This document shows positions 1-43,823 of a stretch of 43,904 nucleotides of DNA, in pieces. The notes beneath the pieces were generated by a model, which did no database searches, was not told the DNA's origin, and worked only from the letters and a program-made list of their open reading frames with translations. The DNA is from Rhodobacteraceae bacterium HTCC2083 (GTDB taxonomy: Bacteria; Pseudomonadota; Alphaproteobacteria; Rhodobacterales; Rhodobacteraceae). The first letter of the stretch is position 1; the number at the start of each line of letters is the position of its first letter. The DNA lies in NCBI GenBank assembly GCA_000156115.1, contig DS995277.1, forward strand, positions 1 through 43,904. Reading direction: 5' to 3'. The position numbers and the translations under genes are program-made.

Positions 1-1
1 C

Positions 2-21464: not shown

Positions 21465-21930
21465 TGGGACTATCTGTTCCTGTTAGGTCATCTGGTCTGT
21501 CCTTGCTGCACGCGCAGATTCAGCTGCGCTTTCCACCGTAGTGGTTCATTTCGAGTGTGTGCGGGCGTTGACCCTGCTACGGTGCAAGCGACCCAGTAGG
21601 GACGCTGCGGTGTCTTTTGTGTCTGCCTCTGGGACCGATTCTGATCCCTTATACGTTGTATTATGACAGGATATGGCGCGAAAACCATGTTTAAGGCAAG
21701 AGATACTATGTTTTAGAACGGGTGGCGCTTGGATGAGTTTGGTGCGTTTTCATTGAAAAAACATAGAACCAATTGAAATTAAATAAAAAATTAGAAATAC
21801 TGACCGTTAAGAGTTTTAGATTGAAATCTGCCAGTGCATTGCTCTTTCGCCGAATCAACTTCGCCACTGTGACTTGTGCTTGTTCAGATCGCGTGATGCA
21901 GTGGGGGAAATTGATCGAGAAGATGCGGAA

Positions 21931-23660: not shown

Positions 23661-24424
23661 CACAGACTGTCGATTTGAATGCAGATATGGGCGAGAGCTT
23701 CGGGGTTTGGACACTTGGCAACGATAGCGCGCTTTTGGATATCGTGACCTCTGCTAATATTGCCTGTGGCTTTCATGCGGGGGACCCTGATGTGATGGCG
23801 CAGACGATGAAATTGGCCGTCGAAATGGGCGTCGGTATTGGCGCGCATCCTGGCTTTCCAGACTTGAGAGGGTTTGGGCGTTATCGTATGCATTTGCCTT
23901 TGCCGCAATTGGCAAATGCGGTGCGCTATCAATTGGGCGCGGCGCAAGCTATGGCCAAGGTCGCAGGCGGGCACGTGCGTCATTTGAAGCTGCATGGGGC
24001 TTTGGCGAATATGTGTTCCGAGAACTACGAAATGGCAGAAGCCTGTTATCGCGCGGCTTTGGAAGTTGATTCAGAGATCATCATCATGGTCTTGGCTGGC
24101 ACGCAGCAGCAGAAGGTGGTTGAGGCACTTGGCTGTGCCTATGCGGCCGAAATTTTTGCGGATCGCGCCTATAATGATGATGCTACTTTGGTGGATCGCG
24201 CTTTGCCGGGGGCTGTTATTCATGATGCGGACCTTGCGGCTGCGCGCATGGTTGAGATGGTGCAAGCGGGTGCGATAATTGCGGAAAGTGGCAAGCGTAT
24301 TCCAACGCGGATCGATACGATTTGCATGCATGGAGACACGCCCGAAGCGGCTGAGATCGCGCGTGGAGTGAAAGCCGCGTTAGAGGCGGCAGGCATCACC
24401 GCGAAAGCTTTTCCGCATGAGTGA
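23657..24424 (+). CDS. pxpA: 5-oxoprolinase subunit PxpA (LamB/YcsF family)
   Basis: A 255-residue LamB/YcsF-family protein, the PxpA subunit thought to bind the lactam substrate. Motifs are VDLNADMGESFGVWTLG (about 5-21), SANIACGFHAGDPDVM (32-47), GIGAHPGFPDLRGFGR (60-75) and VKPHGAL-like LKLHGALANM; the C-terminal CMHGDTPEAAEIA closes the barrel. The length matches the family (about 250). It overlaps pxpC by four bases, and the next frame, a CoA-transferase, begins eight bases before its stop. Reported neighbours of pxpA are usually transporters; a CoA-transferase here is less common. Confidence 0.92.
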   Translation: MTQTVDLNADMGESFGVWTLGNDSALLDIVTSANIACGFHAGDPDVMAQTMKLAVEMGVGIGAHPGFPDLRGFGRYRMHLPLPQLANAVRYQLGAAQAMAKVAGGHVRHLKLHGALANMCSENYEMAEACYRAALEVDSEIIIMVLAGTQQQKVVEALGCAYAAEIFADRAYNDDATLVDRALPGAVIHDADLAAARMVEMVQAGAIIAESGKRIPTRIDTICMHGDTPEAAEIARGVKAALEAAGITAKAFPHE

Positions 24425-25122
24425 GCAGAACCCGTTTTGGCAAGACTTGAACGGTGCCGTGTTTGGCGAACAGATCGCGCCATATCAGATGAGGGGGCAG
24501 GGGCATCTATCTTCGTTCTATTGCACCTCTGATTTGGCGGAAGCCTCTATCGGTTTGGCAGGGACTGCTTTGGCGCGATATTGTGGTGTGGCGAGCGATA
24601 CGGTCACCGTGGATCGCCGTCTTGCGTCGCTCTGGTTTGATATGACGTTGCGCCCTGACGGATGGGAGCTGCCCTCGCTTTGGGATGAGGTCGCGGGTGA
24701 TTATCAATGTGCCGACGGATGGATCCGGCTGCACACGAACGCGCGACATCACCGTGATGCTGCTTTGCGTGTTTTGAACGTCGCTGTTGACCGCGATGCT
24801 GTGAGAGAGGCGGTTTTAGCGTGGAGAGGGATAGAGCTAGAAACTGCGATTGTTACTGCTGGTGGGTGCGCGTCGTTTATGCGCACCGCAGAGGAGTGGG
24901 CGCAGCATCCGCAGGGCAGGGTGGTCGCGTCTAATCCTCTGGTGCATTGGGAGACCCATGGATCGTGCGCACCTCGTTCGCGTCCTGAAAAGATTAGTCT
25001 CGCTGGTTTAAAAGTCCTTGATCTAACCCGCGTCCTTGCAGGGCCAGTGGCAACGCGGTTTTTTGGCGGGCTTTGGTGCAGAGATCTTGCGCATTGACCC
25101 GCCATTCTGGAACGAGCCGAGT
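24417..25122 (+). pseudogene. CaiB/BaiF CoA-transferase, front half (split by 13-kb insertion)
   Basis: The front half of a family III CoA-transferase. The first 225 residues form the divergent N-terminal repeat (SSFYCTSDLAEASIGLAGTA, ADGWIRLHTNARHHRDAALR), and the second repeat starts with LKVLDLTRVLAGPVATRF. A run of six T at 25059-25064 shifts the frame, giving a stop at 25097. With five T the family sequence continues as FLAGFGAEILRIDPPFWNEPS and ends abruptly near 25122. The rest of the protein (EVTLGKRCA onward) is found at 38265-38905. So the gene was cut by the insertion described below, and each half has since gained a frameshift. ATG 24417 overlaps pxpA by eight bases. Confidence 0.88.
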
Positions 25123-25131
25123 ACCGGAATC
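25118..25131 (+). repeat. Left core direct repeat of the insertion (attL-like)
   Basis: CGAGTACCGGAATC at the left junction matches CGAGTGTCGAAATC at 38260-38273 at 11 of 14 positions, in direct orientation. CoA-transferase similarity stops within the left copy and resumes within the right copy, so these are probably the crossover sites of a tyrosine recombinase. Confidence 0.6.
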
Positions 25132-25479
25132 TTTTATCATTCAAATACATTGATTTATCTGAGTTTTCTTGTGTTTTACCAACAGTATTACCAACTAAAA
25201 GAAATAGTGAGGCTGGCACTCGGTTACTAACAAAATGATTGGTAGACGAACCTTTGATGGGGCTCTTGTCGCTCAAGTGTAGCCAGGCTATTGCCGGCAG
25301 GCGTACTTTTGCAACCTTAGCGATGAGGGCAGGGGCACGTGAAGAAATTATGGGCCGAGTTTAAATCATTCGCCGGTATAGATTACACGACAGCGATATG
25401 TGCTTCCGTCCGTAGATGCACTGAGGCCAGCAATGTTGTTGACCTGCAATGAACTCGGACGATGCCTGGGGAAATTGGA
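25132..25479. other. Left end of the element, non-coding
   Basis: About 350 bp without a convincing gene. It begins at the left core repeat, holds the paired TACCAAC motifs (25177-25196) and leads into the unknown gene at 25480. No promoter is clear. Confidence 0.4.
25177..25196 (+). repeat. Paired TACCAAC arm-site motifs, left end
   Basis: TACCAACA at 25177-25184 and TACCAACT at 25189-25196 are direct repeats with 12-bp spacing. The same motif pair with the same spacing and orientation occurs at 38113-38132 near the other end. Paired short repeats at both ends are typical arm-binding sites of a tyrosine integrase. Confidence 0.55.
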
Positions 25480-26157
25480 ATGACAATCCGATCAGATGAA
25501 ATTGCGGAAAAGAAAAGAAAGAGTGCTGAAGAGGCGGATCAAGATAAAGAAGATACCATAGAAGCTATTGGGGAGATAAATGGCTTTATCAAAAACGGTT
25601 TCCTTAACCACGGAGCAACTTGGACAAGGACTTGGTTCGAACTCGACTTGAAATGGTTTAATGGCGAGAATTCGTATGTAACGCTTCCAGCCGCTGAACT
25701 GGAAGAATTCATCAAACGCGCCACGACGATTGCGGAAGCGTTTGAACTAGCAAAATTCGTTACGGCATCGCGGTTAGAACATGGAATTTCAATCCCCGCG
25801 GGCCTTAGGGAGCTAATGGCATGTTACTTGAGAGGGGAATTCACACCTGTATCAAAGGGTCCAGGTCGCAAGGTCGATACGTGGGGGAGAGATTTCATTA
25901 TCGCAAGAACCATGCAGATACTGGAAGGCAGATGGGAACACCGATGCCCGACCAAGCGCAAAGGTTCTAGTAGCGGGATGAAAAGCGTCAGCCAGATCGT
26001 CCATGAAGCAATGCGGAGCATAGAAATCGACAACGTTGATGTCGAGCGCATACAGAAAATATATACGACAGCTCGAAAGAAGAAGGAATGCGATGAGCTG
26101 CAAGCTATGTGGGTGAAATGGATGTTCGACGACGATCCGGATTTAATCCGCATTTGA
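25480..26157 (+). CDS. Uncharacterised element protein
   Basis: A 225-residue protein I do not recognise. It opens with a charged helix (EIAEKKRKSAEEADQDKED), then has an acidic-aromatic region (WTRTWFELDLKWFNGENSYV), and a Lys/Arg-rich middle (GPGRKVDTWGRDFIIART). The C-terminal half is helical and ends in an acidic tail (MFDDDPDLIRI). It has no signal peptide or membrane segment. It stands first in the left arm, before the AlpA-like and primase-helicase genes, so it may serve replication or excision of the element. An in-frame ATG at 25462 is also possible; 25480 is favoured by a GGGGA sequence before it. Confidence 0.6.
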   Translation: MTIRSDEIAEKKRKSAEEADQDKEDTIEAIGEINGFIKNGFLNHGATWTRTWFELDLKWFNGENSYVTLPAAELEEFIKRATTIAEAFELAKFVTASRLEHGISIPAGLRELMACYLRGEFTPVSKGPGRKVDTWGRDFIIARTMQILEGRWEHRCPTKRKGSSSGMKSVSQIVHEAMRSIEIDNVDVERIQKIYTTARKKKECDELQAMWVKWMFDDDPDLIRI

Positions 26158-26251
26158 ATGTTGGCAATATTTCATTGAATTATAACCAACCATTAGGGCC
26201 GAACGAAATGACAGCATGATGAAATACACGGAATCATCATGAGGTTAAAAA

Positions 26252-26497
26252 ATGAACTTGAAGCTCGAAGAATTCACAACGTCGTTGAAGGAGGCACGTC
26301 CTTCGTGGGCTGAAAACATGCGTCCTGCCGTGGCAGCTCTTTACACTGGTTTGTCCGAGAGCACGCTAGCCAAATTGCGCATGTTCCACAATCGGCCAAG
26401 TGGCCCAAATTTTCTAAAGATCTCGGGCTGTGTGGTTTATCGCCGCCGCGATCTCGACAAGTGGATGGACAGTCATTCTGTCGATCCTAGCGCTTGA
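26252..26497 (+). CDS. AlpA/excisionase-like small DNA-binding protein
   Basis: An 81-residue protein with a winged-helix of the MerR/excisionase kind: VAALYTGLSESTLAKLRMFH (about 27-46), then a beta wing GPNFLKISGCVVYRRRDLDKWMDS, in which the recurrent YRR.DLD.W ending is typical for AlpA and Xis-like proteins. GAGGTT lies before the ATG. It lies 21 bases upstream of the primase-helicase gene, the usual position of AlpA-type activators in P4-like and satellite islands. It may direct excision or switch on replication genes. Confidence 0.78.
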   Translation: MNLKLEEFTTSLKEARPSWAENMRPAVAALYTGLSESTLAKLRMFHNRPSGPNFLKISGCVVYRRRDLDKWMDSHSVDPSA

Positions 26498-26518
26498 ATT
26501 AGAGCTAGGAACATTATC

Positions 26519-28897: not shown

Positions 28898-28916
28898 TTT
28901 CGACTAAATTAGTCAT
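28836..28916 (-). pseudogene. 5' stub of an unknown gene, cut at the vapE joint
   Basis: On the minus strand ATG 28916 is preceded by AAGGAT at a normal distance and opens MTNLVEITQEYVELKG, then NPEPVF before running into reversed vapE sequence and stopping at 28836. The good ribosome site and the coding-like opening suggest the first 20 codons of a real gene whose remainder was replaced by the vapE arm. The family is unknown. Confidence 0.4.
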
Positions 28917-29104
28917 TTTGTTATCCTTATGTTTTCCCAAGAGGAATCGACATAAGTATGGTGCCCCCACACAGAACCAAACTATTCTGTAAGTATTTAT
29001 TTTTAAACGAAAATCTGGGACGTAAAATCTAAAAACAACCTCGCAAGGAACCCCGCAACACTCCTAAAAAGAGGTCGCAGGGTCAGGTTCTTGTGAAGTC
29101 TCGC
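28917..29104. other. Short non-coding region
   Basis: About 190 bp, AT-rich. It contains the promoter region of the minus-strand stub. GCAAGGAACCCCGC and GAGGTCGCAGGG near 29043-29085 form no clear hairpin. Nothing else is seen. Confidence 0.3.
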
Positions 29105-29257
29105 TTACCGATTTGAGCCATTCTTACCAATATTGACTTCTTTACCCCTCGCAGGGTTGCCCTTCTGAGCACCTTGATGCTTCTGATAGTAGGTTTCCTG
29201 TTGCCTCTCTTGCTTCTGTTTTAGCAAGTCAGACATCGAGGGCTTCTTGTCAGGCAT
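29105..29257 (-). CDS. Small basic protein, unrecognised
   Basis: A 50-residue very basic, Gln- and Lys-rich protein (SMSDLLKQKQERQQETYYQK, then GNPARGKEV). It begins eight bases before the stop of the 280-residue gene upstream (ATGCCTGA), so it is probably translated by coupling. The overlap and the short helical N-terminus suggest a partner protein or a nucleic-acid-binding peptide, but no family is recognised. An in-frame start at 29290 lies inside the upstream gene and is less likely. Confidence 0.5.
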   Translation of the reverse strand: MPDKKPSMSDLLKQKQERQQETYYQKHQGAQKGNPARGKEVNIGKNGSNR

Positions 29258-30092
29258 TCTCTTTACCTGCTTTGATAAGGTCTTCCACACTCATAGAACT
29301 GACATAGTCCTCGGTAAGCTCCCGATACAAGCTCGCAGCCCTTTTCACATCACCATCAAACCCAGCAGAAATAGCTTCGGCTTCTTCTTGTGAAAACTGA
29401 CGCTCAAAAGCTTCAACAAGGTTTGATACAGGCTCTTCATCAATTTTAAACAAAACTTCATCAGGATGTTCGTTCTTGTCAGTGGTGTAAGGGATACCCA
29501 ACGCTATTTCGCCACCGAGTTGTGTCAGGTCATCCATCGCCATCCCGGTAGCGCAGCCGTCAGTGAAGTCGCGATAGACAGCTTTTGCTTTGTCTAAGTC
29601 GCCATCAAATGCTTCATAAATCTCTTCAATCTGTTCTGGTACGAACTCACCGTCCACCCAGATAACATTCCGAACAGTGGAACTAGCGTGAAAAGAAGTC
29701 TCAGGGGCATCTTCGCCTTTGATGCTGACCTTGTCGGTCCACTTGTCCATATAAAAACTCAAAGCAGACCATGAGCCTTCCCTGTCGTAAGCAACAGGCC
29801 AAGATACGAGAGCCATAAACGCAATCTTTTCGTTCATTTCTCTAAGACAGAAGCCAATAAACGACAGTTCACCATTATAGGTTTCTAGGCAATCTGCGTA
29901 CAACTCAGGGGTAAAGAGACACAGTAGGTTATCTGTGTTCTTGATATGAATACCGCGCATTTCCTCGGCGAGTTTCTCTGGCAACCCTGCTCGGATGCGG
30001 TCTTCAAATTCCGCCAAGTTCGGCAAAATCGCTTCTTCAAGTTGTGCTCTGACAGCCTGATAGTCTGTTGTCATAGGGAGTTGCGCATTCAT
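29250..30092 (-). CDS. Uncharacterised protein with a duplicated FDGD...YR...T motif
   Basis: A 280-residue soluble protein I cannot assign. The N-terminal 150 residues look globular (LLCLFTPELYADCLETYNGE, FMALVSWPVAYDREGSWSAL). The C-terminal half contains two copies of a roughly 41-residue unit: residues 153-193 (EAFDGDLDKAKAVYRDFT) and 236-276 (AGFDGDVKRAASLYRELT), about 15 of 41 positions identical, each ending M-x-hydrophobic-acidic-DL-x-x-x-G. The units resemble helix pairs for binding a partner. It overlaps the small basic gene downstream by eight bases. ATG 30092 is preferred; the frame is open to 30140 but without a good start. Composition is more acidic and AT-rich than that of the left arm. 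Confidence 0.6.
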   Translation of the reverse strand: MNAQLPMTTDYQAVRAQLEEAILPNLAEFEDRIRAGLPEKLAEEMRGIHIKNTDNLLCLFTPELYADCLETYNGELSFIGFCLREMNEKIAFMALVSWPVAYDREGSWSALSFYMDKWTDKVSIKGEDAPETSFHASSTVRNVIWVDGEFVPEQIEEIYEAFDGDLDKAKAVYRDFTDGCATGMAMDDLTQLGGEIALGIPYTTDKNEHPDEVLFKIDEEPVSNLVEAFERQFSQEEAEAISAGFDGDVKRAASLYRELTEDYVSSMSVEDLIKAGKENA

Positions 30093-30226
30093 AAGATAGC
30101 CTACTTTATATCCTAAGATACTTTTTGATTGAAAGGTCAAAAAATGACAAGAGGCGTCACAAACAGGCGCACCTAATCGTGAAGAACTTGAAATACTTCG
30201 TTAAGTGAACAAACGGAGACAGCTCG

Positions 30227-30280
30227 ATGACGCATAATTTCAAACAAGGTGACAGAGTACAAATAGCAGAGTTTTGCTGA
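30227..30280 (+). pseudogene. Gene stub truncated by the IS3 element
   Basis: CGGAGAC precedes ATG 30227, which opens MTHNFKQGDRVQIAEFC and stops at TGA 30278-30280. That TGA is the first triplet of the IS3 terminal repeat. The GDRVQIA pattern is typical for the first strand of a small SH3-like/KOW beta-barrel protein. So an IS insertion cut off a small gene divergent from the 280-residue gene. The remainder is not found beyond the IS. Confidence 0.5.
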
Positions 30281-30311
30281 GCAGCCCCACTTGAGTGGTC
30301 CAATTTGAAAG

Positions 30312-31196
30312 TTAGTGCATGATTGGCCTTTGGTCCATCGGGATGATGGCCTCTGGCGCGGGCGGGCGGTAGCCCAATGCACTGTGTGGTCGCTTGGTGT
30401 TGTAATGGTTCCTCCATCTTTCAATGATGATTTGGGCTTCTCGGAGCGAGTAGAAGATTTCACCGTTCAGCAACTCGTCTCGCATTCTCCCGTTGAAGCT
30501 TTCGCAGTATCCGTTCTCCCAGGGTGATCCAGGTTCTATATAAGCCGTCTTGGCTCCCACGGCTTTGATCCAATCTCTGACGGCCTCAGCAATGAACTCA
30601 GGGCCGTTGTCTGAACGGATGTAGGCAGGGAAACCTCGCAAGATGAACAGGTCCGTAAGAGCGTCGATGACCTCCGTCGAGTTCAGCTTTCGTTTCACTC
30701 GGATCGCCAGACATTCTCGGCTATGCTCGTCCAAGATGTTAAGCGTCCGAAACGCCCTGCCATCATCTGTCCGGTGATGCACGAAGTCATACGACCAGAC
30801 GTGATTACGATACTCGGGACGTAAACGGACACATGATCCGTCATTCAGCCAGAGCCGTCCTTTCTTTGGTTGCTTCATTGGCACTTTAAGCCCCTCACGT
30901 CGCCATAGGCGTTCGACACGCTTGTCATTAACCTGCCAACCCGCGTCTCTCAGCAGGGCTGCAACCCGACGATAGCCATATCGGCCGTACTGGCGTGTGA
31001 ACTCGATCATGTCCGCAACCAAGCGTTCTTCGTCAGCACGCCCTTGTGGCAACCGCCGCTGCGTGGATCGGTGTTGGCCTAATACACGGCAGACACGACG
31101 CTCAGAAACTTTGAACTGACTACGAACGTGATTGATGCAGGCACGCCTGCGCGAGGGGCTTAGAAGTTTCCCGATGCGGCCTCCCTTAAGATCAAC
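30312..31196 (-). pseudogene. IS3-family transposase OrfB (DDE integrase core)
   Basis: The OrfB frame opens after TAA 31197-31199 and reads [31 protein letters not shown] and [18 protein letters not shown], then the rve core. The DDE residues are visible: Asp in [12 protein letters not shown], Asp in [10 protein letters not shown] and Glu in [12 protein letters not shown]; the tail [16 protein letters not shown] is standard. OrfB itself looks intact over the catalytic region, but in this family it is normally made as a frameshift fusion with OrfA. The orfA front is lost, so a working transposase is unlikely. Confidence 0.82.
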
Positions 31197-31285
31197 TTAT
31201 CCAGCGTCAGGTCGGAAACTGCACGCCGAAGACGTTCGTTCTCTTTCTGAAGGCGCTTTAATTCCTTGAGTTGTTCCGTGCCCAT
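31160..31285 (-). pseudogene. IS3 OrfA, C-terminal remnant
   Basis: The last 41 codons of OrfA, a leucine-zipper-like coil (EQLKELKRLQKENERLRRAV, then [13 protein letters not shown]) ending GNF-stop. It overlaps the orfB frame, with the CTTAAGG region as the likely frameshift place. The helix-turn-helix front half is absent; an in-frame TGA lies three codons before ATG 31285. Confidence 0.7.
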
Positions 31286-31303
31286 TGATCAAGCCGCCGA
31301 ATG

Positions 31304-31399
31304 ATGGCAAACTTCAACGAGAACAAGATCTACTTACGAGCGGCACTCAAAAAGGGGGCAGGTTACTATCATGACGGCTTCTACAGCATGCGGCTTTAG
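31304..31399 (+). other. Short coding-like remnant between IS3 and the glycan cargo
   Basis: A 31-codon frame beginning MANFNENKIYLRAALKKG and ending HDGFYSMRL-stop. It starts right at the broken end of the IS3 element. It could be the tail of a gene whose front was lost, but no family is recognised. From 31400 to 31527 I see only the leader of the next gene. Confidence 0.25.
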
Positions 31400-31527
31400 C
31401 CTGATCGCAATTTTTGTCCTTGATGGTCCTGTTCTTCGTTGAGGTATGCGTCCAACAACCACAAATATTTGCCCGACAAAGACCAGTGCCAGCTTATGGC
31501 AACATCTTAATAATTCAGGAAAAATAC

Positions 31528-33141
31528 ATGTCTCTTAAAAAGCGGATTCTGCTGTTGTCGACGATGCGGGATGAAGGCCCCTATATTTTGGAGTGGTTGG
31601 CGTATCACCGCAGTTTGGGTTTCACAGATTTTTTGATTTATACAAATGATTGCCGCGACGGGACCGATCTGATGTTGGATCGGTTGGAGGCTAATGGCGT
31701 GCTAACACATGTGCGCAACAAGGTATTGAAGCGAGGCCCTCAGAAATCAGCCTATAAGGCCGCTATGGCTCATCCGCTTTTTGCAGAGGCCGATTGGGTG
31801 ATGGCTAGTGACGTTGACGAGTTTCTTGTCGTGAACACCGGTGCTGGCAGGCTCGAAGATTTATTGCAACTTCACCCAAGTGTAGATGCAATTCCCGTTT
31901 GCTGGCGGATGTTCTCTCATAACGGTAAAGAAGGTTTTATCGACGGATTAACAACCGAAGTTCTCGTTGATGCTGAATCGCCAGAACCACGCCCAAATGA
32001 TGTGGGGCATTTCGTAAAAAGCCTGTTCAAACCGCATCCTGAACTAAAACGTATCGGGACGCATGCGCCAGTTTACAGTGACGAGTACGCGCCTAAGGCT
32101 TCTTATGGTGCGTCTTGGTACGGGGCTGGAAAGTCAGACAAGCCTGATCGACCCAAAACAGACTACGGGTATCACGTTGCTCAAATTAACCATTATGCGG
32201 TTCGTTCTGTTGACCCGTTTCTTGTCAAATGTGACCGGGGTGATGGCAATTATATGGAAAACCGTTTGCACGCCGATTACTGGAAGAGGTGGTGCCGAGG
32301 CGGCACGACGGACACATCTATCCAGCGGATAGTGCCGGAAATGAAAAAGGAAATGTATGCTTTGATGGAAGATCCGATTGTGCGGCATTTGCACGAAGGG
32401 TCAATTGAGTACCACAAAACCAAGATCGCTGATTTATTGCAGCTTCCCGAGTATCGACAGCTCAAAGCTGAGATCATGGGCATTTCACCTGCTTCGGTTT
32501 CTGTACCTGCTGCGGAAACGCCCGCGGCTCAACAGGTTGCGGCTCCGACAACGATGAATTCAGCGGCTGCTGAATTGCCGATCAAAGCCCCTAAGCGTCA
32601 TCAAAACCGTTTGCTTCTACTTGAAGCGTTGCCAAAGAACGGCAAGGGCGCAGAAATTGGCGTTTGGAACGGCGGATTTTCAGGATACATTCTAGAAGTC
32701 ACTCAACCGACGGAATTGGTACTGATTGACCCATGGGATTTGCTTGCCGGGCAGGACCCAGGTGATTGGACTCATAAAAAGCATAGCGAAGCAGAAGAAA
32801 TGCGCACGATGCGCCACAACGTTGAATCGATGTATGGTGATCTTCCAAATGTGAACATTAAGCAGGGTTTCTCTGCCGAAGTATTGGCTATGTATCCCGA
32901 TAATTACTTTGATTGGGTCTACATTGATGGAAACCATCTTTATGACTTCGTGAAGAAAGATCTGGAATTGTCGTTTAAGAAAGTCCGCCCAGGTGGGATC
33001 GTGGCCGGGGACGACTTCTTTTGGAAACGCAATGATCGCATGCATGTCAAAGAGGCCGTGTTGGATACGATGCGTAGCTTAGGAATGCAAAACCGTCCAA
33101 CGCGGCATGGTCAACAGTTTATGATAACCGTTCCGGAATAA
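31528..33141 (+). CDS. Glycosyltransferase-methyltransferase fusion
   Basis: A 537-residue two-domain enzyme. Residues 1-310 are a Glyco_tranf_2_4 glycosyltransferase: LLSTMRDEGPYILEWLAYHR, IYTNDCRDGTDLML and the metal motif ASDVDEFLVV (Asp95, Asp97), with QINHYAVRS later. A Pro/Ala-rich linker covers about 320-355. Residues 360-537 are a class I SAM methyltransferase (Methyltransf_24 type): KGAEIGVWNGGFSGYI (374-389), WVYIDGNHLYDFVKKDLEL and RPGGIVAGDDFFW. It may add and then methylate a sugar in a surface glycan. AGGA lies seven bases before ATG 31528; the frame is open upstream to 31414. Its first domain resembles the C-terminal half of the gene at 13435, outside the element. Confidence 0.86.
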   Translation: MSLKKRILLLSTMRDEGPYILEWLAYHRSLGFTDFLIYTNDCRDGTDLMLDRLEANGVLTHVRNKVLKRGPQKSAYKAAMAHPLFAEADWVMASDVDEFLVVNTGAGRLEDLLQLHPSVDAIPVCWRMFSHNGKEGFIDGLTTEVLVDAESPEPRPNDVGHFVKSLFKPHPELKRIGTHAPVYSDEYAPKASYGASWYGAGKSDKPDRPKTDYGYHVAQINHYAVRSVDPFLVKCDRGDGNYMENRLHADYWKRWCRGGTTDTSIQRIVPEMKKEMYALMEDPIVRHLHEGSIEYHKTKIADLLQLPEYRQLKAEIMGISPASVSVPAAETPAAQQVAAPTTMNSAAAELPIKAPKRHQNRLLLLEALPKNGKGAEIGVWNGGFSGYILEVTQPTELVLIDPWDLLAGQDPGDWTHKKHSEAEEMRTMRHNVESMYGDLPNVNIKQGFSAEVLAMYPDNYFDWVYIDGNHLYDFVKKDLELSFKKVRPGGIVAGDDFFWKRNDRMHVKEAVLDTMRSLGMQNRPTRHGQQFMITVPE

Positions 33142-33212
33142 GCTACTATGACCCAACGCATAGTATCACTGATATCATCTCAACCTTCATTTCTTGAAAG
33201 GGCCTGTTCTTC

Positions 33213-34058
33213 ATGTCTTTGCCTGTAATTGCCGCTCTTTGGATGGAAGGGCCGCTGAGCTTCCTCGAGCAACTATGTTTGAAATCCTATGTCGATGTCG
33301 GACATCACGTCATTCTTTATCAATACGGAGAAGTGACCCATGTGCCCGATGGTATTGAGATCGCAGATGCAAATGACATCCTACCGCGGACCGGTTTTCT
33401 AAAGCATAATCGTACGGGAAGTCCGGCGCTGCACTCGGATTTGTTCCGTTATAAGTTGCTTGAAAACGCAGAGAACGTCATTTGGGCTGATACAGACGCG
33501 TACTGTTTGAAACCTTTTGAAATGGTCGATGGCCACTATCATGGCTGGGGATCTGACGTGGAAATTTTTGGTGGCGTTTTAGCCTTGCCCAAAAAAAGTG
33601 AAACGCTTCAAGCTTTGTTAGAATTCACATCTGACGAATTTGCCATTCCGATGTGGTACAATGAAAAAACCACAAATCGGATGATCAAGGCTAAAGAAGA
33701 AGGTAATCCTATTCATGCCAGCGAACAGCCTTGGGGTGTTTGGGGGCCGCAAGCATTGACCTATTTTCTTCAGAAAACTGGTGAAGATAAGTATTCCTTA
33801 CCAACATCGGTGCTATATCCTTTCCCATTCAACCGCCGAAATCGGATGCTTTTGCCGAATTTCCGCGTAGGGAAATTCTTGAAAGATGATACAACATCAA
33901 TTCACTTTTACGGTCGTCGCATGCGTGAGCGGATCGTGTTGACTGAAGGCGGTGTGCCTCATCCTGACAGTTTGCTTGGACAACTGATGGAAAAACATGG
34001 GATTAAAGCAGCAGACGCGCCACTACCTCCGGCTCGTAAAGATCAGAAAAACGACTAA
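33213..34058 (+). CDS. GT32-like glycosyltransferase (DXD sugar-binding type)
   Basis: A 281-residue glycosyltransferase of the family with the DXD sugar-binding region shared by Och1-like, capsule and alpha-1,4-galactosyl transferases. The core is ALHSDLFRYKLLENAENVIW (about 70-89) followed by ADTDAYCLKPF, in which Asp-Thr-Asp is the metal and nucleotide-sugar site. Later blocks are GGVLALPKKSETLQALL and WGVWGPQALTYFLQK. It follows the fusion gene after 71 bases and precedes the sulfotransferase-like gene, on one strand. The donor may be a UDP-hexose, in line with galE downstream, but this is a guess. Confidence 0.78.
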   Translation: MSLPVIAALWMEGPLSFLEQLCLKSYVDVGHHVILYQYGEVTHVPDGIEIADANDILPRTGFLKHNRTGSPALHSDLFRYKLLENAENVIWADTDAYCLKPFEMVDGHYHGWGSDVEIFGGVLALPKKSETLQALLEFTSDEFAIPMWYNEKTTNRMIKAKEEGNPIHASEQPWGVWGPQALTYFLQKTGEDKYSLPTSVLYPFPFNRRNRMLLPNFRVGKFLKDDTTSIHFYGRRMRERIVLTEGGVPHPDSLLGQLMEKHGIKAADAPLPPARKDQKND

Positions 34059-34095
34059 ACGCGATCGCGTTAACTCAATAGTACAAAGTGAAAAA

Positions 34096-34878
34096 ATGTC
34101 CGTGAAGCCAAAGACAAGACCGAAGTCCGGCGCAAAGCGCTTTTTAACAAAGGAATGCCATGCTGTTGGACCGGTCGGAACGGATGTTCAGGAGTTCACC
34201 ATCTACGGTGAACGCAGCACGGGCACCAATTTCACGCAAGCGCTTTTGGAACGTAACTTCCCGGATCTCAATCGGATCAGCACTTTCCCATGGGAAAAGC
34301 ATTCTTATGTGGCGACGCCGATCGCGAAGCCAAGCACTCTCGCGATTGTTGTCGTCCGCGAGCCTATCCGTTGGATGCAAAGCCTATTTCGCAATCCGCA
34401 CCAAGTCGGCTCATGGAGCGCTGGCCTAAGTTTTAGTGATTTTATCCGTCACGAATGGTCTTCTGTGTTTGATGGCTGGCTCTTTCCGCGCCAAAGGTCA
34501 TTTGGTGCGAGCGGGAAAGAGTTGATGTTAGATCGCCATCCATTAACCGGTGCGCGTCCCAAAAACATCATTGAGTTGCGTAACTGGAAGGGGCAAAGCT
34601 ATGGCCGTATTCCAGCATTTTACCAAAATTGGGTTTTTTTAAGATATGAGGATTTGAATGAAGACCCGGAAGGGTTTTTAGCCGAGTTAAGCGAAACATA
34701 TCGGTTAAAATCCAACAGCGATATTGTCAGCAAAATTGAGGATGTGTCGAATGTCGCGTCAAATTCGACACGAACTAATGCGCCTTATCCCGAGGTTACA
34801 CCTGATGATCACAAATTCATCTTGAAAGAAATTGACGACGAACAAGAACGTCGATTTGGGTATCTTACAAACAAGTAA
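34096..34878 (+). CDS. Sulfotransferase-like protein
   Basis: A 260-residue protein with a P-loop resembling that of PAPS-dependent sulfotransferases: FTIYGERSTGTNFTQALLER (about 35-54; the loop GERSTGTNF replaces PKSGTTWL). The second cofactor element is LAIVVVREPIRWMQSLFRNP (the 3'-phosphate site with Arg and Ser), and WVFLRYEDLNEDPEGFLAEL is typical of the third block. Lys at the N-terminal basic tail (KPKTRPKSGAKR) is unusual. It would put a sulfate on the sugar built by the preceding enzymes. ATG 34096 is chosen; an open frame upstream overlaps the GT32-like gene in a different frame. The function is family-level. Confidence 0.72.
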   Translation: MSVKPKTRPKSGAKRFLTKECHAVGPVGTDVQEFTIYGERSTGTNFTQALLERNFPDLNRISTFPWEKHSYVATPIAKPSTLAIVVVREPIRWMQSLFRNPHQVGSWSAGLSFSDFIRHEWSSVFDGWLFPRQRSFGASGKELMLDRHPLTGARPKNIIELRNWKGQSYGRIPAFYQNWVFLRYEDLNEDPEGFLAELSETYRLKSNSDIVSKIEDVSNVASNSTRTNAPYPEVTPDDHKFILKEIDDEQERRFGYLTNK

Positions 34879-34899
34879 TCGCGTTCTAGGGAGAGAGTT

Positions 34900-35898
34900 A
34901 TGCGTATCGCGGTGACCGGTGGTGCTGGATATATCGGGAGCCACACCTGCACGCTGTTGTTGGCAGCAGGGCACGACGTTCTCATTATCGACAATTTTAA
35001 TAATTCGAAATCAGACGTGCTGGACCGGATCGAGAAAGTCGCCGGTGTTCGCCCTCGGATCAACCAAACCGACATAACGCAAGCCGATGCGCTTTCGGCG
35101 GTTTTTTCAGACTATAGACCTGACGCAGTCTTGCACTTTGCTGGCCTGAAGGCGGTGGGCGAAGCGGTCGAGAATCCGCTAGAGTACTACCGAGTAAATG
35201 TTGGTGGTTCTGTGTCGCTGTTCCAAGCTATGGAAAATGTGGGCTGTAACAAGATCGTATTTTCTTCATCTGCAACAGTGTATGGTGATCCGGATCAGGT
35301 GCCGATTGTAGAAAACCACCCATTGCGCCCGACAAATCCGTATGGGCAATCCAAAAGATATGTAGAAAAGATACTTGAGGATTGGGGACAGGCCAATTCA
35401 AACTTGGCTGCTGTAAATTTGCGGTACTTCAATCCATTTGGTGCGCACCCAACCGCCCTGTTGGGTGAGAATCCACAAGGTATCCCTAACAACTTAATGC
35501 CGTATGTCGCTCAGGTTGCGACGGGCCAAGCCGCTGAACTTCTCGTCTTTGGAGATGATTATGATACGCCTGATGGTACCGGTGTACGTGACTACATACA
35601 CGTAATGGACCTGGCCGCGGCGCATTTAAAGGCGCTTGATTTGACGGTCCGAAAAGCCGGAGTTAAGGCGATCAATGTAGGGACAGGCAATGGTTATTCC
35701 GTTATGCAGATGATCAACGCCTTCAAAAGAGCATCTAATCGTGAGATCCCGTATCGTGTTGTAGATCGTCGCCCCGGCGATATAGCTGAATGCGTTGCCG
35801 ACCCTTCGTTTGCATTCGAGCTACTCGGCTGGAAGTCGGAGTTGGGCCTTGAAAGAATGTGCGCCGATGCATGGTCGTATCAAAATTCTCTCAAGTGA
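34900..35898 (+). CDS. galE: UDP-glucose 4-epimerase
   Basis: A 332-residue short-chain dehydrogenase-type epimerase converting UDP-glucose to UDP-galactose (or the GlcNAc/GalNAc pair). The NAD site is VTGGAGYIGSH (5-15), and the catalytic triad is Ser124 (FSSSATVYG), Tyr148 and Lys152 (NPYGQSKRYVE). The rest is standard: LRYFNPFGAHP, MPYVAQVATG, DYDTPDGTGVRDYIHVMDLA. AGGGAGA precedes ATG 34900. It ends the glycan cargo and supplies a nucleotide sugar. A further small frame starts at its stop (GTGA overlap) and is cut after 39 codons. Confidence 0.93.
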   Translation: MRIAVTGGAGYIGSHTCTLLLAAGHDVLIIDNFNNSKSDVLDRIEKVAGVRPRINQTDITQADALSAVFSDYRPDAVLHFAGLKAVGEAVENPLEYYRVNVGGSVSLFQAMENVGCNKIVFSSSATVYGDPDQVPIVENHPLRPTNPYGQSKRYVEKILEDWGQANSNLAAVNLRYFNPFGAHPTALLGENPQGIPNNLMPYVAQVATGQAAELLVFGDDYDTPDGTGVRDYIHVMDLAAAHLKALDLTVRKAGVKAINVGTGNGYSVMQMINAFKRASNREIPYRVVDRRPGDIAECVADPSFAFELLGWKSELGLERMCADAWSYQNSLK

Positions 35899-36014
35899 AA
35901 CATTGCTTGCGTATCGAGACGGTACCATCCGGTATCCCCAAGTCAGTGATTCTGGTCGAAGAAAACCCGTATTTTGAAAAATATACAGAATTCATGAAGT
36001 TGGTGACGGCGTGA
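35895..36014 (+). pseudogene. Stub of a gene coupled to galE
   Basis: GTG 35895 overlaps the galE stop (GTGA) and opens a 39-codon frame: HCLRIETVPSGIPKSVIL, then VEENPYFEKYTEFMKLVTA and TGA 36012-36014. The composition looks coding, and the overlap suggests it was the fifth gene of the glycan operon. It ends where a small inverted repeat (GTGATCA at 36011-36017 and TGATCAC at 36038-36044) begins, so it may have been cut by an insertion or deletion. The family is not recognised. Confidence 0.42.
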
Positions 36015-36080
36015 TCAGGCGGCATTTTGCAGTTGCTTGATCACGTCCTGGAACTCAATGCCTTCGATGATCTCGGGCAT
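36015..36080 (-). other. Very small minus-strand frame with strong ribosome site
   Basis: GAGGAGC lies at a good distance before ATG 36080, which opens MPEIIEGIEFQDVIKQ and stops at TGA 36015-36017 after 21 codons. Such a site rarely occurs by chance, so this may be the first part of a transposase or other gene cut at the joint with the galE-coupled stub. From 36081 to 36262 I see no further gene. Confidence 0.3.
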
Positions 36081-36262
36081 ACGGTCAGCTCCTCTCGGTT
36101 CGCTTCAACAGCTTACCTCAAAGGCTTTCTCATACAGGAACCAAAATGATTGCACCGACGACTCTCTACAATGAAATATCACTCACATCCTTTTCTCGAC
36201 ATTAACTTGATCTGAGCCATGTATTATTTTTGTAAATCCTGGATCCGTGCTGAGTAATTTTT

Positions 36263-37228
36263 CTAAGACAGCGCTGAAGCACCTCTCCGTGCCATAAACC
36301 AATCCACATACCCATTCAGGTATTTTGTTGCGGGACCACGGAACGGTCGAATGAACTCTTTGTATTGAGCATGAAACGCATTGATGTTTTGAATGTGAAA
36401 GGTCTGTTTAATACTTCGTGTGCCTGGTTTCGAACCGAGTACAAAGTGAGAAATGCCTTTGGTGTTTGTATACCTCTGATAGCCCTTCAGCCCATCGCTG
36501 CATAGAGCTGCATCGCGTGAGATGATGGGCATTAGGCTTTTGACGATTGTTTTTACACGGCGGTTAGAAATGCGCTTTGCAAAACGCTGACCTGACCTAT
36601 CCATTGCGGTTAAAATTGGCAGTTGCCACCTGCTAAGGCCCCGCTCTTTCTTAAGTCCAGTCTTAGTGTATTCGTGCCAGCGAATGCGCGGTGGTTTAGG
36701 ATGCAGCGTCGGATACCGCTCGTTGTTCACCCACTCTCTGCTCCCCTTACGAGACTCCCTCTGAAAAGTCTCATCAACCTCGACAATGCCGCTCAGTTTC
36801 TGGTCAGGCTGCGACAGAGATTGGAAAATAAGCAGACGCCATCGCCAGATGGTATCCTTGTTGACATCCAGTTGGCGCGCAAGACGACGGATAGAGCGAG
36901 GAGGGCCATCAGAAAACATATCTTTCAAGACTTGGTAAAACTGATCCAGCTTCTGAAGTTGCGCGATGGAACTTCCAGTTCGCCCATTGAAGGTCTTTAA
37001 GCAGCCTTGGCAGCGATATCGCTGAGAGCCCGCCCGTGTCCTTCCCCACCGTTGTCTATCTACTGCGCCACAGTGTGGGCAGGTTGCTTCCCGTGCGTTG
37101 CGGTCAATTGCCCCCACTGCCGCTTTCTGGGACGCGATATCACATGCGGTTGCGATTAGGGATTCTACCTGATCAGGAGTCAGGCCTATTAGCCGGTTGA
37201 GCATGGTTTCGAAAGATTTCTGTTTCAT
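36263..37228 (-). CDS. IS1595-family (ISXO2-like) transposase
   Basis: A 321-residue transposase. The N-terminal zinc ribbon has Cys50, Cys53, Cys73 and Cys76 (ATCPHCGAVD and YRCQGCLKTF). A helix-turn-helix follows (SIRRLARQLDVNKDTIWRWR). The ISXO2-type DDE core shows Asp in IVEVDETFQRES, Asp in ALCSDGLKGYQR and the late NAFHAQYKEFIRPFRG that replaces the classic third residue. The length matches intact family members. GGAGA precedes ATG 37228, which is better than the in-frame start at 37261. Terminal repeats and the target duplication could not be fixed by eye, so it may or may not be active. Confidence 0.85.
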   Translation of the reverse strand: MKQKSFETMLNRLIGLTPDQVESLIATACDIASQKAAVGAIDRNAREATCPHCGAVDRQRWGRTRAGSQRYRCQGCLKTFNGRTGSSIAQLQKLDQFYQVLKDMFSDGPPRSIRRLARQLDVNKDTIWRWRLLIFQSLSQPDQKLSGIVEVDETFQRESRKGSREWVNNERYPTLHPKPPRIRWHEYTKTGLKKERGLSRWQLPILTAMDRSGQRFAKRISNRRVKTIVKSLMPIISRDAALCSDGLKGYQRYTNTKGISHFVLGSKPGTRSIKQTFHIQNINAFHAQYKEFIRPFRGPATKYLNGYVDWFMARRGASALS

Positions 37229-37728
37229 GTGTTCTCCGCACGAAGATTGCAGAGAGTACATTGGCTTAATTGGTCAAAACAGAAATCAACCAACACGCAT
37301 TACAGACATTTCCAAAATAAAAATGCCCCTCGCGCGCTGAAAGCCCTTGACAGATTCGGTGAAAAAGGTCGGCCCGCTCGATCCTGGGGGCCGAAAACAC
37401 CGTATATGCGCAGATGCACGTTTTTGCGCGGATTTGCACACTCTTTCATTAATTTAATTCATAATTAAGGCCTTTAATATCCAATTATTCTCATAAACAG
37501 GGCGGATGTGCCATGGGTTCTGTGCAAAACTGTCTAATAACGCGCTCTGCGCCCCCCGTGTCTGGTCCAATCCTGGCAATGGGACCCAATCTAGCTACGA
37601 AGCCATGATGCATTGAACACCAGAATATCGAAGGCATTGTTGCAATCCAATTGCCAAGATTCTGAGGTAACTCGTTCTAGAGTGTGGTGACGCGTCGCTT
37701 GTCGGGTAACGCGGTCTTTTGTTAGAAG
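37229..37728. other. Non-coding stretch between transposase and integrase remnant
   Basis: About 500 bp. No convincing gene. It should contain the outer terminal repeat of the IS1595-type element and the joint that cut off the integrase. No part of the missing integrase catalytic domain is recognisable here. Confidence 0.35.
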
Positions 37729-38070
37729 TTAATCAGCGTTAAGCTCCTCGAGGTGTACGTCGGCCCGCACTTTGGCAATCTCTGCTTCACGAGCGGCCAG
37801 ATTAGAATTTTTCCGTTCAGCCGAAGGATCAATTTTCTGAGCGAGAAACTCACGGGCTTCGGTTCTTTGATCCCTTGCGGACTTCAGAGATGTTTCTGGG
37901 TAAGTTCCGAAAGAAATCGTTCGCTGTTTGCCGTACCAACGATAGTTGAAGTGCCAATATCGACTCCCATTGGGTTTTAGAACGAACGTCAAACCTAAGC
38001 CGTCGCCGATTTTCTGGGTTTTCTCAGTGGGCTTGAGCTTTCGAAGCTGTGAATCGTTTAGTTTGGTCAT
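37729..38070 (-). pseudogene. P4-type tyrosine integrase, N-terminal fragment only
   Basis: A 113-residue fragment of a phage P4-type site-specific integrase. It has the DUF4102 arm-binding domain: LNDSQLRKLKPTEKTQKIGD, GLGLTFVLKPNGSRYWHFNY and YGKQRTISFGTYPETSLKSA, then ARDQRTEAREFLAQKIDP. It stops at TAA 37729-37731, before the core-binding and catalytic domains (the Arg, His and Tyr of the active site are absent), whereas the family is about 400 residues. It starts about 190 bp inside the right end of the element and reads inward, the usual place for the integrase. It is probably the remains of the gene that integrated the element. Confidence 0.82.
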
Positions 38071-38112
38071 TGTTTGTATATTTTGTTGATGGGTTCCCGC
38101 GATGGGCTAAAA

Positions 38113-38132
38113 TACCAACAAAGATACCAACA
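38113..38132 (+). repeat. Paired TACCAAC arm-site motifs, right end
   Basis: TACCAACA at 38113-38120 and 38125-38132, direct repeats spaced by 12 bp, the same arrangement as at 25177-25196. They lie about 130 bp from the right core repeat, just before the integrase gene. Confidence 0.55.
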
Positions 38133-38159
38133 AAATTGCTTCATCTCTTGGTACCTCCT

Positions 38160-38245
38160 TGCGTCTTAATGCGCACATGATGGCAGAAATATCAACGATT
38201 TATGAGGTTGGGGATTTGTAATACGTCTCACTGCGTCTTAATGCG
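38160..38245 (+). repeat. Direct repeat TGCGTCTTAATGCG, two copies
   Basis: Exact 14-bp copies at 38160-38173 and 38232-38245, 72 bp apart. The second ends 15 bases before the right core repeat. They may be further integrase or excisionase sites; no copy was found at the left end. Confidence 0.55.
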
Positions 38246-38259
38246 TGAAACACTGGAGG

Positions 38260-38273
38260 CGAGTGTCGAAATC
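38260..38273 (+). repeat. Right core direct repeat of the insertion (attR-like)
   Basis: CGAGTGTCGAAATC matches the left core at 25118-25131 at 11 of 14 positions. CoA-transferase coding resumes here: joining the left half to this point gives NEPS-VEIEVTLGKRCA in one frame. Confidence 0.6.
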
Positions 38274-38905
38274 GAAGTCACGCTTGGCAAACGCTGTGCG
38301 TTCTTGATCTGCGCGTGGACACGGACGTGCAACGCTTGAAAGACCTGATGAAAGAGGCGGATGTTTTCGTGCACGGGTACCGTGCGGATGCATTCGAAAA
38401 TCTGGGGCTGGGTCGGGATATGCGTCGGTCGTTGAACCCACATATGATTGATGTGTCGCTGAACGCCTATGGCTGGAGCGGTCCTTGGGTTGCGCGGCGT
38501 GGTTTTGACAGTTTGGTGCAGATGAGTTGTGGCATTGCGGCGCTCGGGATGCAGGAAGCTGGTGAAGCGCGCCCCGTGCCTTTACCTGTTCAGGCGTTGG
38601 ATCATGCGACGGGATATCTGGTTGCTGCGTGTGTTTTGGAAGCTTTGTCAAAGCGCGCGACCGGTCAGATCACTTCGGCGCGTTTGTCATTGGCAGGCAC
38701 TGCACATCTTTTGGCGCAACATCGATGCGCGCGCGTGTCGGAGGGCGCGATTGTGCAATCATCTGAAGACTTTGATCCGAAGCGTGAGACAACAGGATGG
38801 GGTCCCGCACTTCGTGTGAAAGCCCCGATGGATGTTTCGGGACAGGCGATGGAGTGGGCGCTCGGAGTGGGGCCACTTCGTCGGCATGATCCACACTGGT
38901 CGTGA
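38265..38905 (+). pseudogene. CaiB/BaiF CoA-transferase, rear half
   Basis: The remainder of the family III CoA-transferase begun at 24417. It opens with VEIEVTLGKRCAF, then a missing base near 38304-38308 shifts the frame. After that it reads LDLRVDTDVQRLKDLMKEAD and VFVHGYRADAFENLGLG (the typical VHGYRP block), YGWSGPWVARRGFDSLVQM and GIAALGM, and ends at TGA 38903-38905. The first internal start codon is GTG 38315, which could allow a fragment to be made, but it would lack the catalytic half. Front and rear together give about 450 residues, the usual size. Confidence 0.85.
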
Positions 38906-43765: not shown

Positions 43766-43823
43766 GGTCAACCTTCCAGAAAGAGTGATCGGGCAACACA
43801 CACGCAGCCCGACCAAATTGAGA

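What the first reader, a model, noticed from the sequence alone, without database searches (positions are those of the whole stretch)
24417..38905. CoA-transferase gene split by a 13-kb element whose ends can be reconstructed
The front half (LKVLDLTRVLAGPVATRF ... FWNEPS) ends near 25122 and the rear half (EVTLGKRCA ... VHGYRADA) starts near 38265. An imperfect 14-bp direct repeat sits at both junctions (11 of 14 identical), and joining the copies restores one frame. Integration of a P4-type element into a protein-coding metabolic gene, rather than a tRNA gene, is unusual and would inactivate the last gene of the pxp operon.
Basis: partly seen in the sequence, partly recalled or inferred. Interest (0 to 1): 0.75.

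Follow-up and report, generated by a model that had tools for sequence, protein, structure and literature searches.

The report
tRNA-cysteine element stranded in metabolic gene
A 13-kb mobile DNA element whose attachment sequence copies the end of a transfer-RNA gene has landed in a look-alike site inside a metabolic gene on a bacterial plasmid, splitting that gene, and has since lost most of the enzyme it would need to leave.

Summary
The split is real. A same-genus relative (G003) carries the CoA-transferase gene uninterrupted, and both window flanks align to it, overlapping by 17 bp at the empty site. The element is about 13.1 kb (25123-38264). Two details change. Joining the halves does not give one open frame, because each half also differs from G003 by a 1-bp indel near the junction. 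The integrase is only a 113-aa arm-domain remnant.

The main new result is the element's proper target. The element sides of the two junctions, put together, read GATTCCGGTACTCGCCTCCA, a 20/20 match to the 3' end of the strain's own tRNA-Cys gene. The interrupted gene site matches that sequence at only 14 of 20 positions, yet ties for best on the plasmid. All 13 family relatives of the integrase domain found at E<=1e-20 sit beside tRNA genes, and paired arm-type repeats lie at both element ends.

Best explanation: off-target ("secondary attachment site") integration of a tRNA-Cys element into a plasmid-borne gene, followed by decay. The phenomenon is known (ICEBs1, lambda, SGI1); this is a clear natural fossil of it. 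No intact sister at tRNA-Cys was found.

The parts
21874..24424 (+). pxpB (21874-22659), pxpC (22656-23660), pxpA (23657-24424): 5-oxoprolinase-type genes directly upstream of, and overlapping, the split gene
   Evidence: Pfam CT_C_D, CT_A_B, LamB_YcsF over their cut-offs; NCBIfam PxpA subfamily over, PxpB and PxpC equivalogs under, their cut-offs
24417..25122 (+). Left half of the CoA-transferase gene; frame lost at about 25.06 kb (ORF stops at 25097)
25112..25131 (-). Left junction (attL). Minus strand GATTCCGGT-ACTCG-GCTCGT: the first 14 bases equal the tRNA-Cys 3' end (element side plus shared core), the rest is the gene
   Evidence: 17/20 to the tRNA-Cys tail; aligned
25177..25195 (+). 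Left arm-type sites (inferred): TACCAAC at 25177 and 25189, 12 bp apart
   Evidence: a 7-mer present twice in each end arose in 0 of 3000 shuffles of the two ends
25462..26157 (+). 231-aa protein of unknown family, syntenic in the same-family genome G262
   Evidence: no Pfam or PHROG match; 25.5% identity over 192 aa to the G262 counterpart
26252..26497 (+). Small excisionase/AlpA-like protein, 81 aa (the AlpA label is mine)
   Evidence: phrog_66 excisionase, E 3.5e-4 only; no Pfam match; G262 counterpart 55% over 58 aa
26519..28897 (+). 792-aa primase/helicase (VapE-like domain), 64% identical over 89% to the helicase of Ruegeria phages DSS3-P1 / vB_RpoS-V7, V11, V18
   Evidence: PF05272 E 2.8e-50; phrog_256 E 2e-166
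29250..30140 (-). 296-aa ORF without a family match
30276..31286 (-). Insertion sequence (IS3-type by recall), transposase ORF 30312-31052; 18 further copies of this stretch at 97-100% in the chromosome
   Evidence: rve, rve_3, HTH_21
31414..35898 (+). Cargo: glycosyltransferase/methyltransferase fusion (31414-33141), 281-aa and 293-aa proteins without a Pfam or NCBIfam match, GalE (34900-35898)
   Evidence: no second DNA copy of this cargo in the genome
36263..37261 (-). IS1595-type transposase
   Evidence: DDE_Tnp_IS1595 E 3.1e-8
37729..38070 (-). Integrase remnant: arm DNA-binding domain only (113 aa), catalytic domain missing
   Evidence: PF13356 E 2.3e-23; none of 26 PF00589 matches of the genome lies on C4
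38113..38131 (+). Right arm-type sites (inferred): TACCAAC at 38113 and 38125, 12 bp apart (GTTGGTA on the integrase strand)
   Evidence: paired repeats at the same place in 12 of 13 integrase relatives
38254..38273 (-). Right junction (attR). Minus strand GATTTCGAC-ACTCG-CCTCCA: the last 11 bases equal the tRNA-Cys 3' end including CCA (shared core plus element side), the rest is the gene
   Evidence: 17/20 to the tRNA-Cys tail; aligned
38260..38905 (+). Right half of the CoA-transferase gene; a second 1-bp indel near 38.30 kb; ORF 38315-38905

Best explanation
A circular, phage-like integrative element (integrase, excisionase-like protein, VapE-type helicase) whose attachment core is a 20-bp copy of the tRNA-Cys 3' end recombined, through its own tyrosine integrase, with an imperfect look-alike site inside the plasmid-borne CoA-transferase gene instead of with tRNA-Cys. 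The strands were exchanged in or next to the shared 5 bp ACTCG. Because the two partners differ on both sides of that core, the junctions are mismatched hybrids of tRNA tail and gene. SHOWN from sequence: the empty site, the split, the 20/20 tRNA-Cys core, paired repeats at both ends, an integrase remnant beside one junction in the orientation seen at tRNA genes, and the 1-bp indels. INFERRED: that the repeats are arm sites, integrase catalysis of the event, poor or no excision from the mismatched site, and later loss of the catalytic domain by IS-linked rearrangement while the cargo was gained or kept. The gene is inactivated; the genome search found no second close homologue, though more distant CoA-transferases of the family exist in the genome.
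For: Empty site in G003 with 17-bp overlap; 4 of 5 same-genus relatives have the gene open across the site (the contig of the fifth, G004, ends before it). The 20-mer made from the element sides of the two junctions matches exactly one place in the 4.0-Mb genome, the 3' end of tRNA-Cys(gca) at C5:2466424; within 3 mismatches there are only three further places, the two junctions and one non-tRNA copy; the pattern read backwards gives none. The same 20-mer marks tRNA-Cys islands in the family: in 12 of 15 stretches chosen for two same-strand copies, tRNA-Cys ends exactly in the first copy. The arm domain's 13 family relatives (E<=1e-20, 394 genomes searched) all sit at tRNA genes (Phe 6, Thr 5, Met 1, Leu 1), in the same orientation as here. 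Paired direct repeats about 12 bp apart upstream of the integrase in 12 of 13 relatives and in the window, with the same heptamer pair at the far end. The gene site is 14/20 to the tRNA tail, tied for best of 61,486 plasmid positions; the other 14/20 position lacks the ACTCG core.
Against: No intact copy of this element was found at a tRNA-Cys gene: the 13 family relatives of the arm domain are at Phe, Thr, Met and Leu, and no ORF (80 aa or more) in the 15 fetched stretches matched the arm domain; 8 of 8 ORFs picked there as integrases have PF00589 without PF13356. The gap from the CCA-equivalent to the integrase start (183 bp) lies outside the 160-164 bp of the 13 relatives. One of 13 relatives lacks the paired repeat (L022). 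dN/dS of the split gene against G003 (0.31) is close to pxpA (0.26) and pxpC (0.22), so there is little sign of long decay. Five of the 14 matching positions of the gene site are the shared core itself. Catalysis and excision were not observable. Assembly was not checked against reads. Another full-length CoA_transf_3 gene exists in the chromosome, so a functional loss is not certain.
Confidence: 0.87

Rival explanations
1. The CoA-transferase gene is the element's regular, evolved target, like elements specialised for dusA or thdF.
For: The element does sit there, with paired repeats and an integrase remnant in plausible geometry, and no sister was found at tRNA-Cys.
Against: The element's core equals tRNA-Cys at 20/20 but the gene site at only 14/20. 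The homologous site was uninterrupted in 10 of 10 relatives' genes that I put to (10 of the 19 loci from other genomes fetched). Integrase relatives sit at tRNAs in 13 of 13 family genomes.
Confidence: 0.06
2. IS-driven or illegitimate transposition, or a composite transposon, inserted the 13 kb; the short repeat at the junctions is chance or a target duplication.
For: Two transposase genes lie inside; only 5 bp are strictly shared at the junctions.
Against: The transposase genes are internal, not at the ends. The two junctions carry complementary parts of one tRNA 3' end, which a transposon does not explain, and the same repeat pair sits at both ends. Of 78 inverted-repeat pairs the 25 longest were listed; none joins the two ends, the nearest (17 nt, 82%) lying about 390 and 810 bp inside.
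Confidence: 0.04
3. Mis-assembly or sequencing error created the split and/or the indels.
For: One of the two indels lies in a run of identical bases, a typical error place; reads were not available.
Against: The junctions have a biological structure (tRNA tail, paired repeats) that assembly error would hardly create. An ORF of IclR type runs across the contig ends, as in a complete circle. The indels alone could still be errors.
Confidence: 0.03

Closest known systems
Secondary-site integration of ICEBs1 (PMC3715440, passages seen)
   Same: A tRNA-targeting element uses other genomic sites with mismatches to the proper core; the two junctions can then differ in sequence, and excision from all secondary sites analysed was reduced or eliminated.
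   Different: Those ICEBs1 events were obtained in the laboratory in a strain lacking the tRNA site. Here it is a natural event, on a plasmid, in an element with a phage-like helicase that has lost most of its integrase.
Salmonella genomic island 1 second attB (PMC2297512, abstract and outline seen); off-site lambda integration (PMC5605937, search listing only)
   Same: Off-target integration of a site-specific element.
   Different: SGI1's first site is the 3' end of a protein gene (thdF) and its second site is intergenic; the SGI1 and lambda events are experimental.
Islands at tRNA genes with arm-domain (PF13356) integrases in the same family (L022-L034)
   Same: Arm domain, paired repeats 11-13 bp apart (12 of 13), integrase next to the tRNA end and reading away from it.
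   Different: They sit at Phe, Thr, Met or Leu tRNA genes. The window's element is in a protein gene and has a tRNA-Cys core.
Ruegeria phage DSS3-P1 and relatives
   Same: Helicase 64% identical over 89% of the query.
   Different: No other part of the element was shown to come from these phages; no capsid or tail family was recognised among the element proteins scanned.
Element in G262 (L160-L161)
   Same: The 231-aa-type protein, excisionase-like protein and helicase in the same order, next to an arm-domain integrase.
   Different: There the integrase is complete and directly upstream of the 231-aa gene; it is only distantly related (34% over 68 aa). No tRNA was found in the 39.8 kb fetched; its site is unknown.

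Membership tests
tRNA-targeting integrative element / genomic island with arm-domain tyrosine integrase | Integrase with Arm-DNA-bind_3 domain next to one attachment site, reading into the element | tested here: met
   PF13356 E 2.3e-23; 183 bp from the core, against 160-164 bp in 13 of 13 relatives
tRNA-targeting integrative element / genomic island with arm-domain tyrosine integrase | Complete integrase with catalytic domain | tested here: not met
   113-aa remnant; none of the 26 PF00589 matches lies on C4: a decayed element, no longer autonomous
tRNA-targeting integrative element / genomic island with arm-domain tyrosine integrase | Attachment core is a copy of a tRNA 3' end | tested here: met
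   20/20 to tRNA-Cys of the same genome
tRNA-targeting integrative element / genomic island with arm-domain tyrosine integrase | Lies in or next to the tRNA gene | tested here: not met
   No tRNA in the window or in the 3 kb around either junction; lies in the CoA-transferase gene
Secondary-attachment-site integration (as ICEBs1) | Empty site known; the site resembles the primary core imperfectly | tested here: met
   14/20, tied best of 61,486 plasmid positions
Secondary-attachment-site integration (as ICEBs1) | Left and right junctions differ around the crossover | tested here: met
   4 differences in 18 bp, only 5 bp contiguous identity (counted)
Secondary-attachment-site integration (as ICEBs1) | Excision reduced compared with the primary site | not testable with these tools
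   needs an experiment; loss of the catalytic domain fits but does not show it
P4-like phage satellite | Integrase, excisionase/AlpA-like protein and helicase/primase together | tested here: inconclusive
   helicase and integrase remnant clear; excisionase-like match weak (E 3.5e-4); similar set in G262
P4-like phage satellite | Packaging by or interference with a helper phage | not testable with these tools
   no such gene recognised in the proteins scanned
Composite transposon | IS copies or inverted repeats at both outer ends | tested here: not met
   transposase genes are internal; none of the 25 inverted pairs listed of 78 joins the ends

The most novel reading that the evidence does not exclude
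Off-target landing is a recurrent evolutionary trap for tRNA-Cys elements in this lineage. Here a plasmid-borne mimic stranded an element, which then lost most of its integrase and carries sugar-modification genes on a plasmid. The chromosome holds a second, non-tRNA copy of the tRNA-Cys tail (19/20 at C5:2959176), with an integrase fragment 4.6 kb away, that could be another such fossil. Stranded elements with tRNA tails inside ordinary genes may be a widespread class that tRNA-centred island finders miss.
Probability: 0.2. Interest if true: 0.6.

Novelty: new member of a known kind. Interest (0 to 1): 0.42.

Why it matters
Off-target integration by site-specific integrases is, in the papers seen here, described from laboratory transfers. 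This locus gives a natural case in which the proper target, the actual target, the empty site in a relative and the later decay of the integrase can all be read from sequence. It also suggests a cheap survey: search genomes for tRNA 3'-end copies split across the two junctions of an insertion in a protein gene. That would measure how often mobile elements land off target and become stranded in nature.

Tried and rejected
Regular target in the gene, transposition and assembly error were weighed and ranked low (see rivals). I looked for an intact sister element at tRNA-Cys. I fetched the 15 stretches (14 genomes) that, in the listed part, have two same-strand copies of the 20-mer within 20 kb; no ORF there matched the arm domain at E<=1e-3, and the 8 ORFs that I picked as integrases have PF00589 without PF13356. 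Exact 20-mer matches in IMG/VR gave 43 stretches; no ORF of 60 aa or more in them matched the arm domain at E<=1e-4, and one (L157) matched the helicase, E 2e-29. The G262 element has the same gene order behind a complete but only distantly related arm-domain integrase, and no tRNA was found in the 39.8 kb fetched.

I tried to learn whether the strain's own tRNA-Cys site is already occupied, which would help explain an off-target landing. Against G003 the similarity ends within 10 bp of the tRNA-Cys 3' end, and G001 and G005 match only the tRNA and its upstream side. The stretch beyond G005's second core copy has no match in G000. One search was dominated by an IS. Occupancy stays open. The 231-aa protein found no phage match.

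Literature (listings; passages of PMC3715440 and PMC8224337; abstract and outline of PMC2297512) showed no report of this locus or of a tRNA-Cys element in a CoA-transferase gene; the library is open-access only. PMC8224337 lists tRNA types used by roseobacter prophages; Cys is not among those named in the passage.

Slips: the join used doubled one base at the junction (the indel listed at L003 2204 is that artefact, not counted; the last two gap columns are the alignment's end), and the provisional join was off by a base, so its rank counts are not used.


Full report
WHAT WAS CHECKED. The finding says that a CoA-transferase gene is split by about 13 kb with an imperfect repeat at both junctions. 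The two halves match parts of the CoA_transf_3 profile in order (positions 1-23 in the left ORF, just under the cut-off, and 74-209 in the right ORF). Searching 101 genomes (own and 100 relatives) with the left half gave matches at E<=0.001 in 26 of 101, the weakest being short matches to other family members, and one match in the own genome. Of five same-genus relatives, four have one open frame across the site (open frames of 459, 442, 447 and 506 codons in G003, G001, G002 and G005) and match the window on both sides of it; the contig of the fifth (G004) ends before it. The nearest, G003, aligns to both flanks (96.8% and 95.2%) with a 17-bp overlap at the empty site. So the insertion is real and the flanks are still near-identical.

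CORRECTIONS. The joined gene is not one open frame: the left ORF ends at 25097, and alignment with G003 shows one 1-bp indel in each half, both within about 60 bp of the junction. The compared parts of pxpA and pxpC have no indel; the DNA downstream of the gene has one. dN/dS against G003 is 0.31 for the split gene, 0.26 for pxpA and 0.22 for pxpC, so the decay is young or the indels are errors. The integrase is the arm DNA-binding domain only.

THE TARGET OF THE ELEMENT. On the minus strand the left junction reads GATTCCGGT-ACTCG-GCTCGT and the right junction GATTTCGAC-ACTCG-CCTCCA. The G003 empty site reads ATTTCGAC-ACTCG-GCTCG at the same place. Taking the gene parts away leaves the element's own core, GATTCCGGT-ACTCG-CCTCCA. 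A search of the 4.0-Mb genome with up to 3 mismatches gave four places. One is exact: the 3' end, including CCA, of tRNA-Cys(gca) at C5:2466424-2466443. One has a single mismatch (C5:2959176, no tRNA found). The other two are the junctions, with 3 mismatches each. The reversed control pattern gave none. The identity starts in the T loop and ends exactly at CCA, as expected for an element that re-supplies a tRNA end (general knowledge). In the family the exact 20-mer occurs in 146 of 248 genomes. Among the 15 stretches that I fetched because they hold two same-strand copies within 20 kb, 12 have tRNA-Cys ending exactly in the first copy, so this 20-mer looks like a used attachment core there.

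INTEGRASE AND ARM SITES. In 394 family genomes the arm domain has matches at E<=1e-20 in 14, the own genome included. All 13 others lie beside a tRNA gene (Phe 6, Thr 5, Met 1, Leu 1), with 160-164 bp between tRNA end and integrase start; in the window the corresponding distance is 183 bp in the same orientation. Of 17 loci from a broader collection, 15 were scanned for tRNAs and 8 have one directly upstream. Upstream of the integrase, 12 of 13 relatives carry a 6-mer direct repeat 11-13 bp apart at positions 129-145 of the interval (L022 does not); the window carries GTTGGTA twice, 12 bp apart, at 143 and 155, nearly the same letters as L032. The same heptamer pair with the same spacing is at the left end (25177, 25189); the heptamer occurs 8 times in the whole window on both strands, 4 of them in these two pairs. 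When the two ends were shuffled, a 7-mer present twice in each end arose in 0 of 3000 trials (single-base shuffles). I read these as arm-type integrase sites, an inference from position, pairing and conservation.

WHY THIS GENE. On the plasmid with the element left out, the insertion site matches the tRNA-Cys tail at 14 of 20 positions, tied for best of 61,486 positions on both strands; the other 14/20 position lacks the ACTCG core. Five of the 14 matches are the shared core itself, which any breakpoint definition would favour; the remaining 9 of 15 are the independent part.

HOW IT MOST LIKELY HAPPENED. A circular element, made by excision or newly arrived, recombined at ACTCG with the look-alike site. 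Work on ICEBs1 reports 15 different secondary sites in a strain without the tRNA site, none in tRNA genes, some with 2-3 and some with 10-12 mismatches of 17, junctions that can differ, and excision reduced or eliminated at all secondary sites analysed (PMC3715440, passages). The same logic would strand this element. Its integrase has since lost the catalytic domain, and the region between helicase and integrase holds an insertion sequence (18 further copies at 97-100%), sugar-modification genes and an IS1595-type transposase. The order of these events is inference.

WHAT SPEAKS AGAINST. No intact sister of this integrase was found at tRNA-Cys, and the tRNA-Cys stretches examined have other integrases. 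The 183-bp spacing is outside the 160-164 range. Whether the strain's own tRNA-Cys was occupied when the event happened is open: similarity to G003 ends within 10 bp of the tRNA end, and G001 and G005 share only the tRNA and its upstream side, which fits a busy integration spot, but none of the 26 integrase matches lies within 50 kb and no second close core copy lies downstream. The gene's loss need not be a loss of function: another CoA_transf_3 gene is present in the chromosome (L069 10981-12270), though it is not a close homologue.

RELATIVES OF THE ELEMENT. The helicase is 64% identical to that of Ruegeria phages DSS3-P1, V7, V11 and V18. G262 carries the 231-aa-type protein, excisionase-like protein and helicase in the same order behind a complete arm-domain integrase that is distantly related (34% over 68 aa). 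Pfam and PHROG scans recognise no capsid or tail protein among the element proteins submitted.

VERDICT. A real and well-resolved case of off-target integration of a tRNA-Cys element into a plasmid-borne metabolic gene, followed by decay. The kind of event is known; this natural example with most of the pieces visible is new to me, and the literature listings seen do not show it.

Noticed in passing
G000:C5:2959176-2959195 (L069 9676-9695): A 19/20 copy of the tRNA-Cys 3' end where no tRNA gene was found, with a 143-aa integrase fragment (PF00589, under its cut-off) about 4.6 kb away and a full CoA_transf_3 gene 1.3 kb away; possibly a second stranded or decayed element.
   Followed up: partly
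G000:C5 downstream of tRNA-Cys (L068), and L163-L167: DNA beyond the tRNA-Cys 3' end of G000 is not shared with G003, G001 or G005, while the upstream side is; in G005 a second same-strand core copy lies 68.7 kb away. tRNA-Cys looks like a busy integration spot in the genus.
   Followed up: partly
window 30276-31286: Insertion sequence with 18 further copies in the chromosome at 97-100% identity; the window copy seems to lack an end into which the chromosomal copies extend.
   Followed up: partly
window 26519-28897: Helicase 64% identical to Ruegeria phage DSS3-P1-group helicases, a phage link of the element.
   Followed up: partly
window 13435-15843 and 31414-33141: The glycosyltransferase on the plasmid backbone and the one inside the element are homologous (34% over 334 aa, E 2e-57); possible common origin of the sugar cargo.
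   Followed up: partly
L022-L034, interval between tRNA and integrase: Conserved pairs of direct repeats about 12 bp apart (TTGGGGGT-like in most, GTTGGTA in L032 and the window): arm-site variants that could be used to type these integrases.
   Followed up: partly
window 1-616 and 43821-43904: An IclR-type regulator ORF (IclR_C) continues across the contig ends, so the window is probably a complete circular plasmid of 43,904 bp.
   Followed up: partly
L160-L161 (G262:C2): A compact element with a complete arm-domain integrase, 231-aa-type protein, excisionase-like protein and helicase in a row, with no tRNA found in the fetched DNA; its attachment site was not determined.
   Followed up: no
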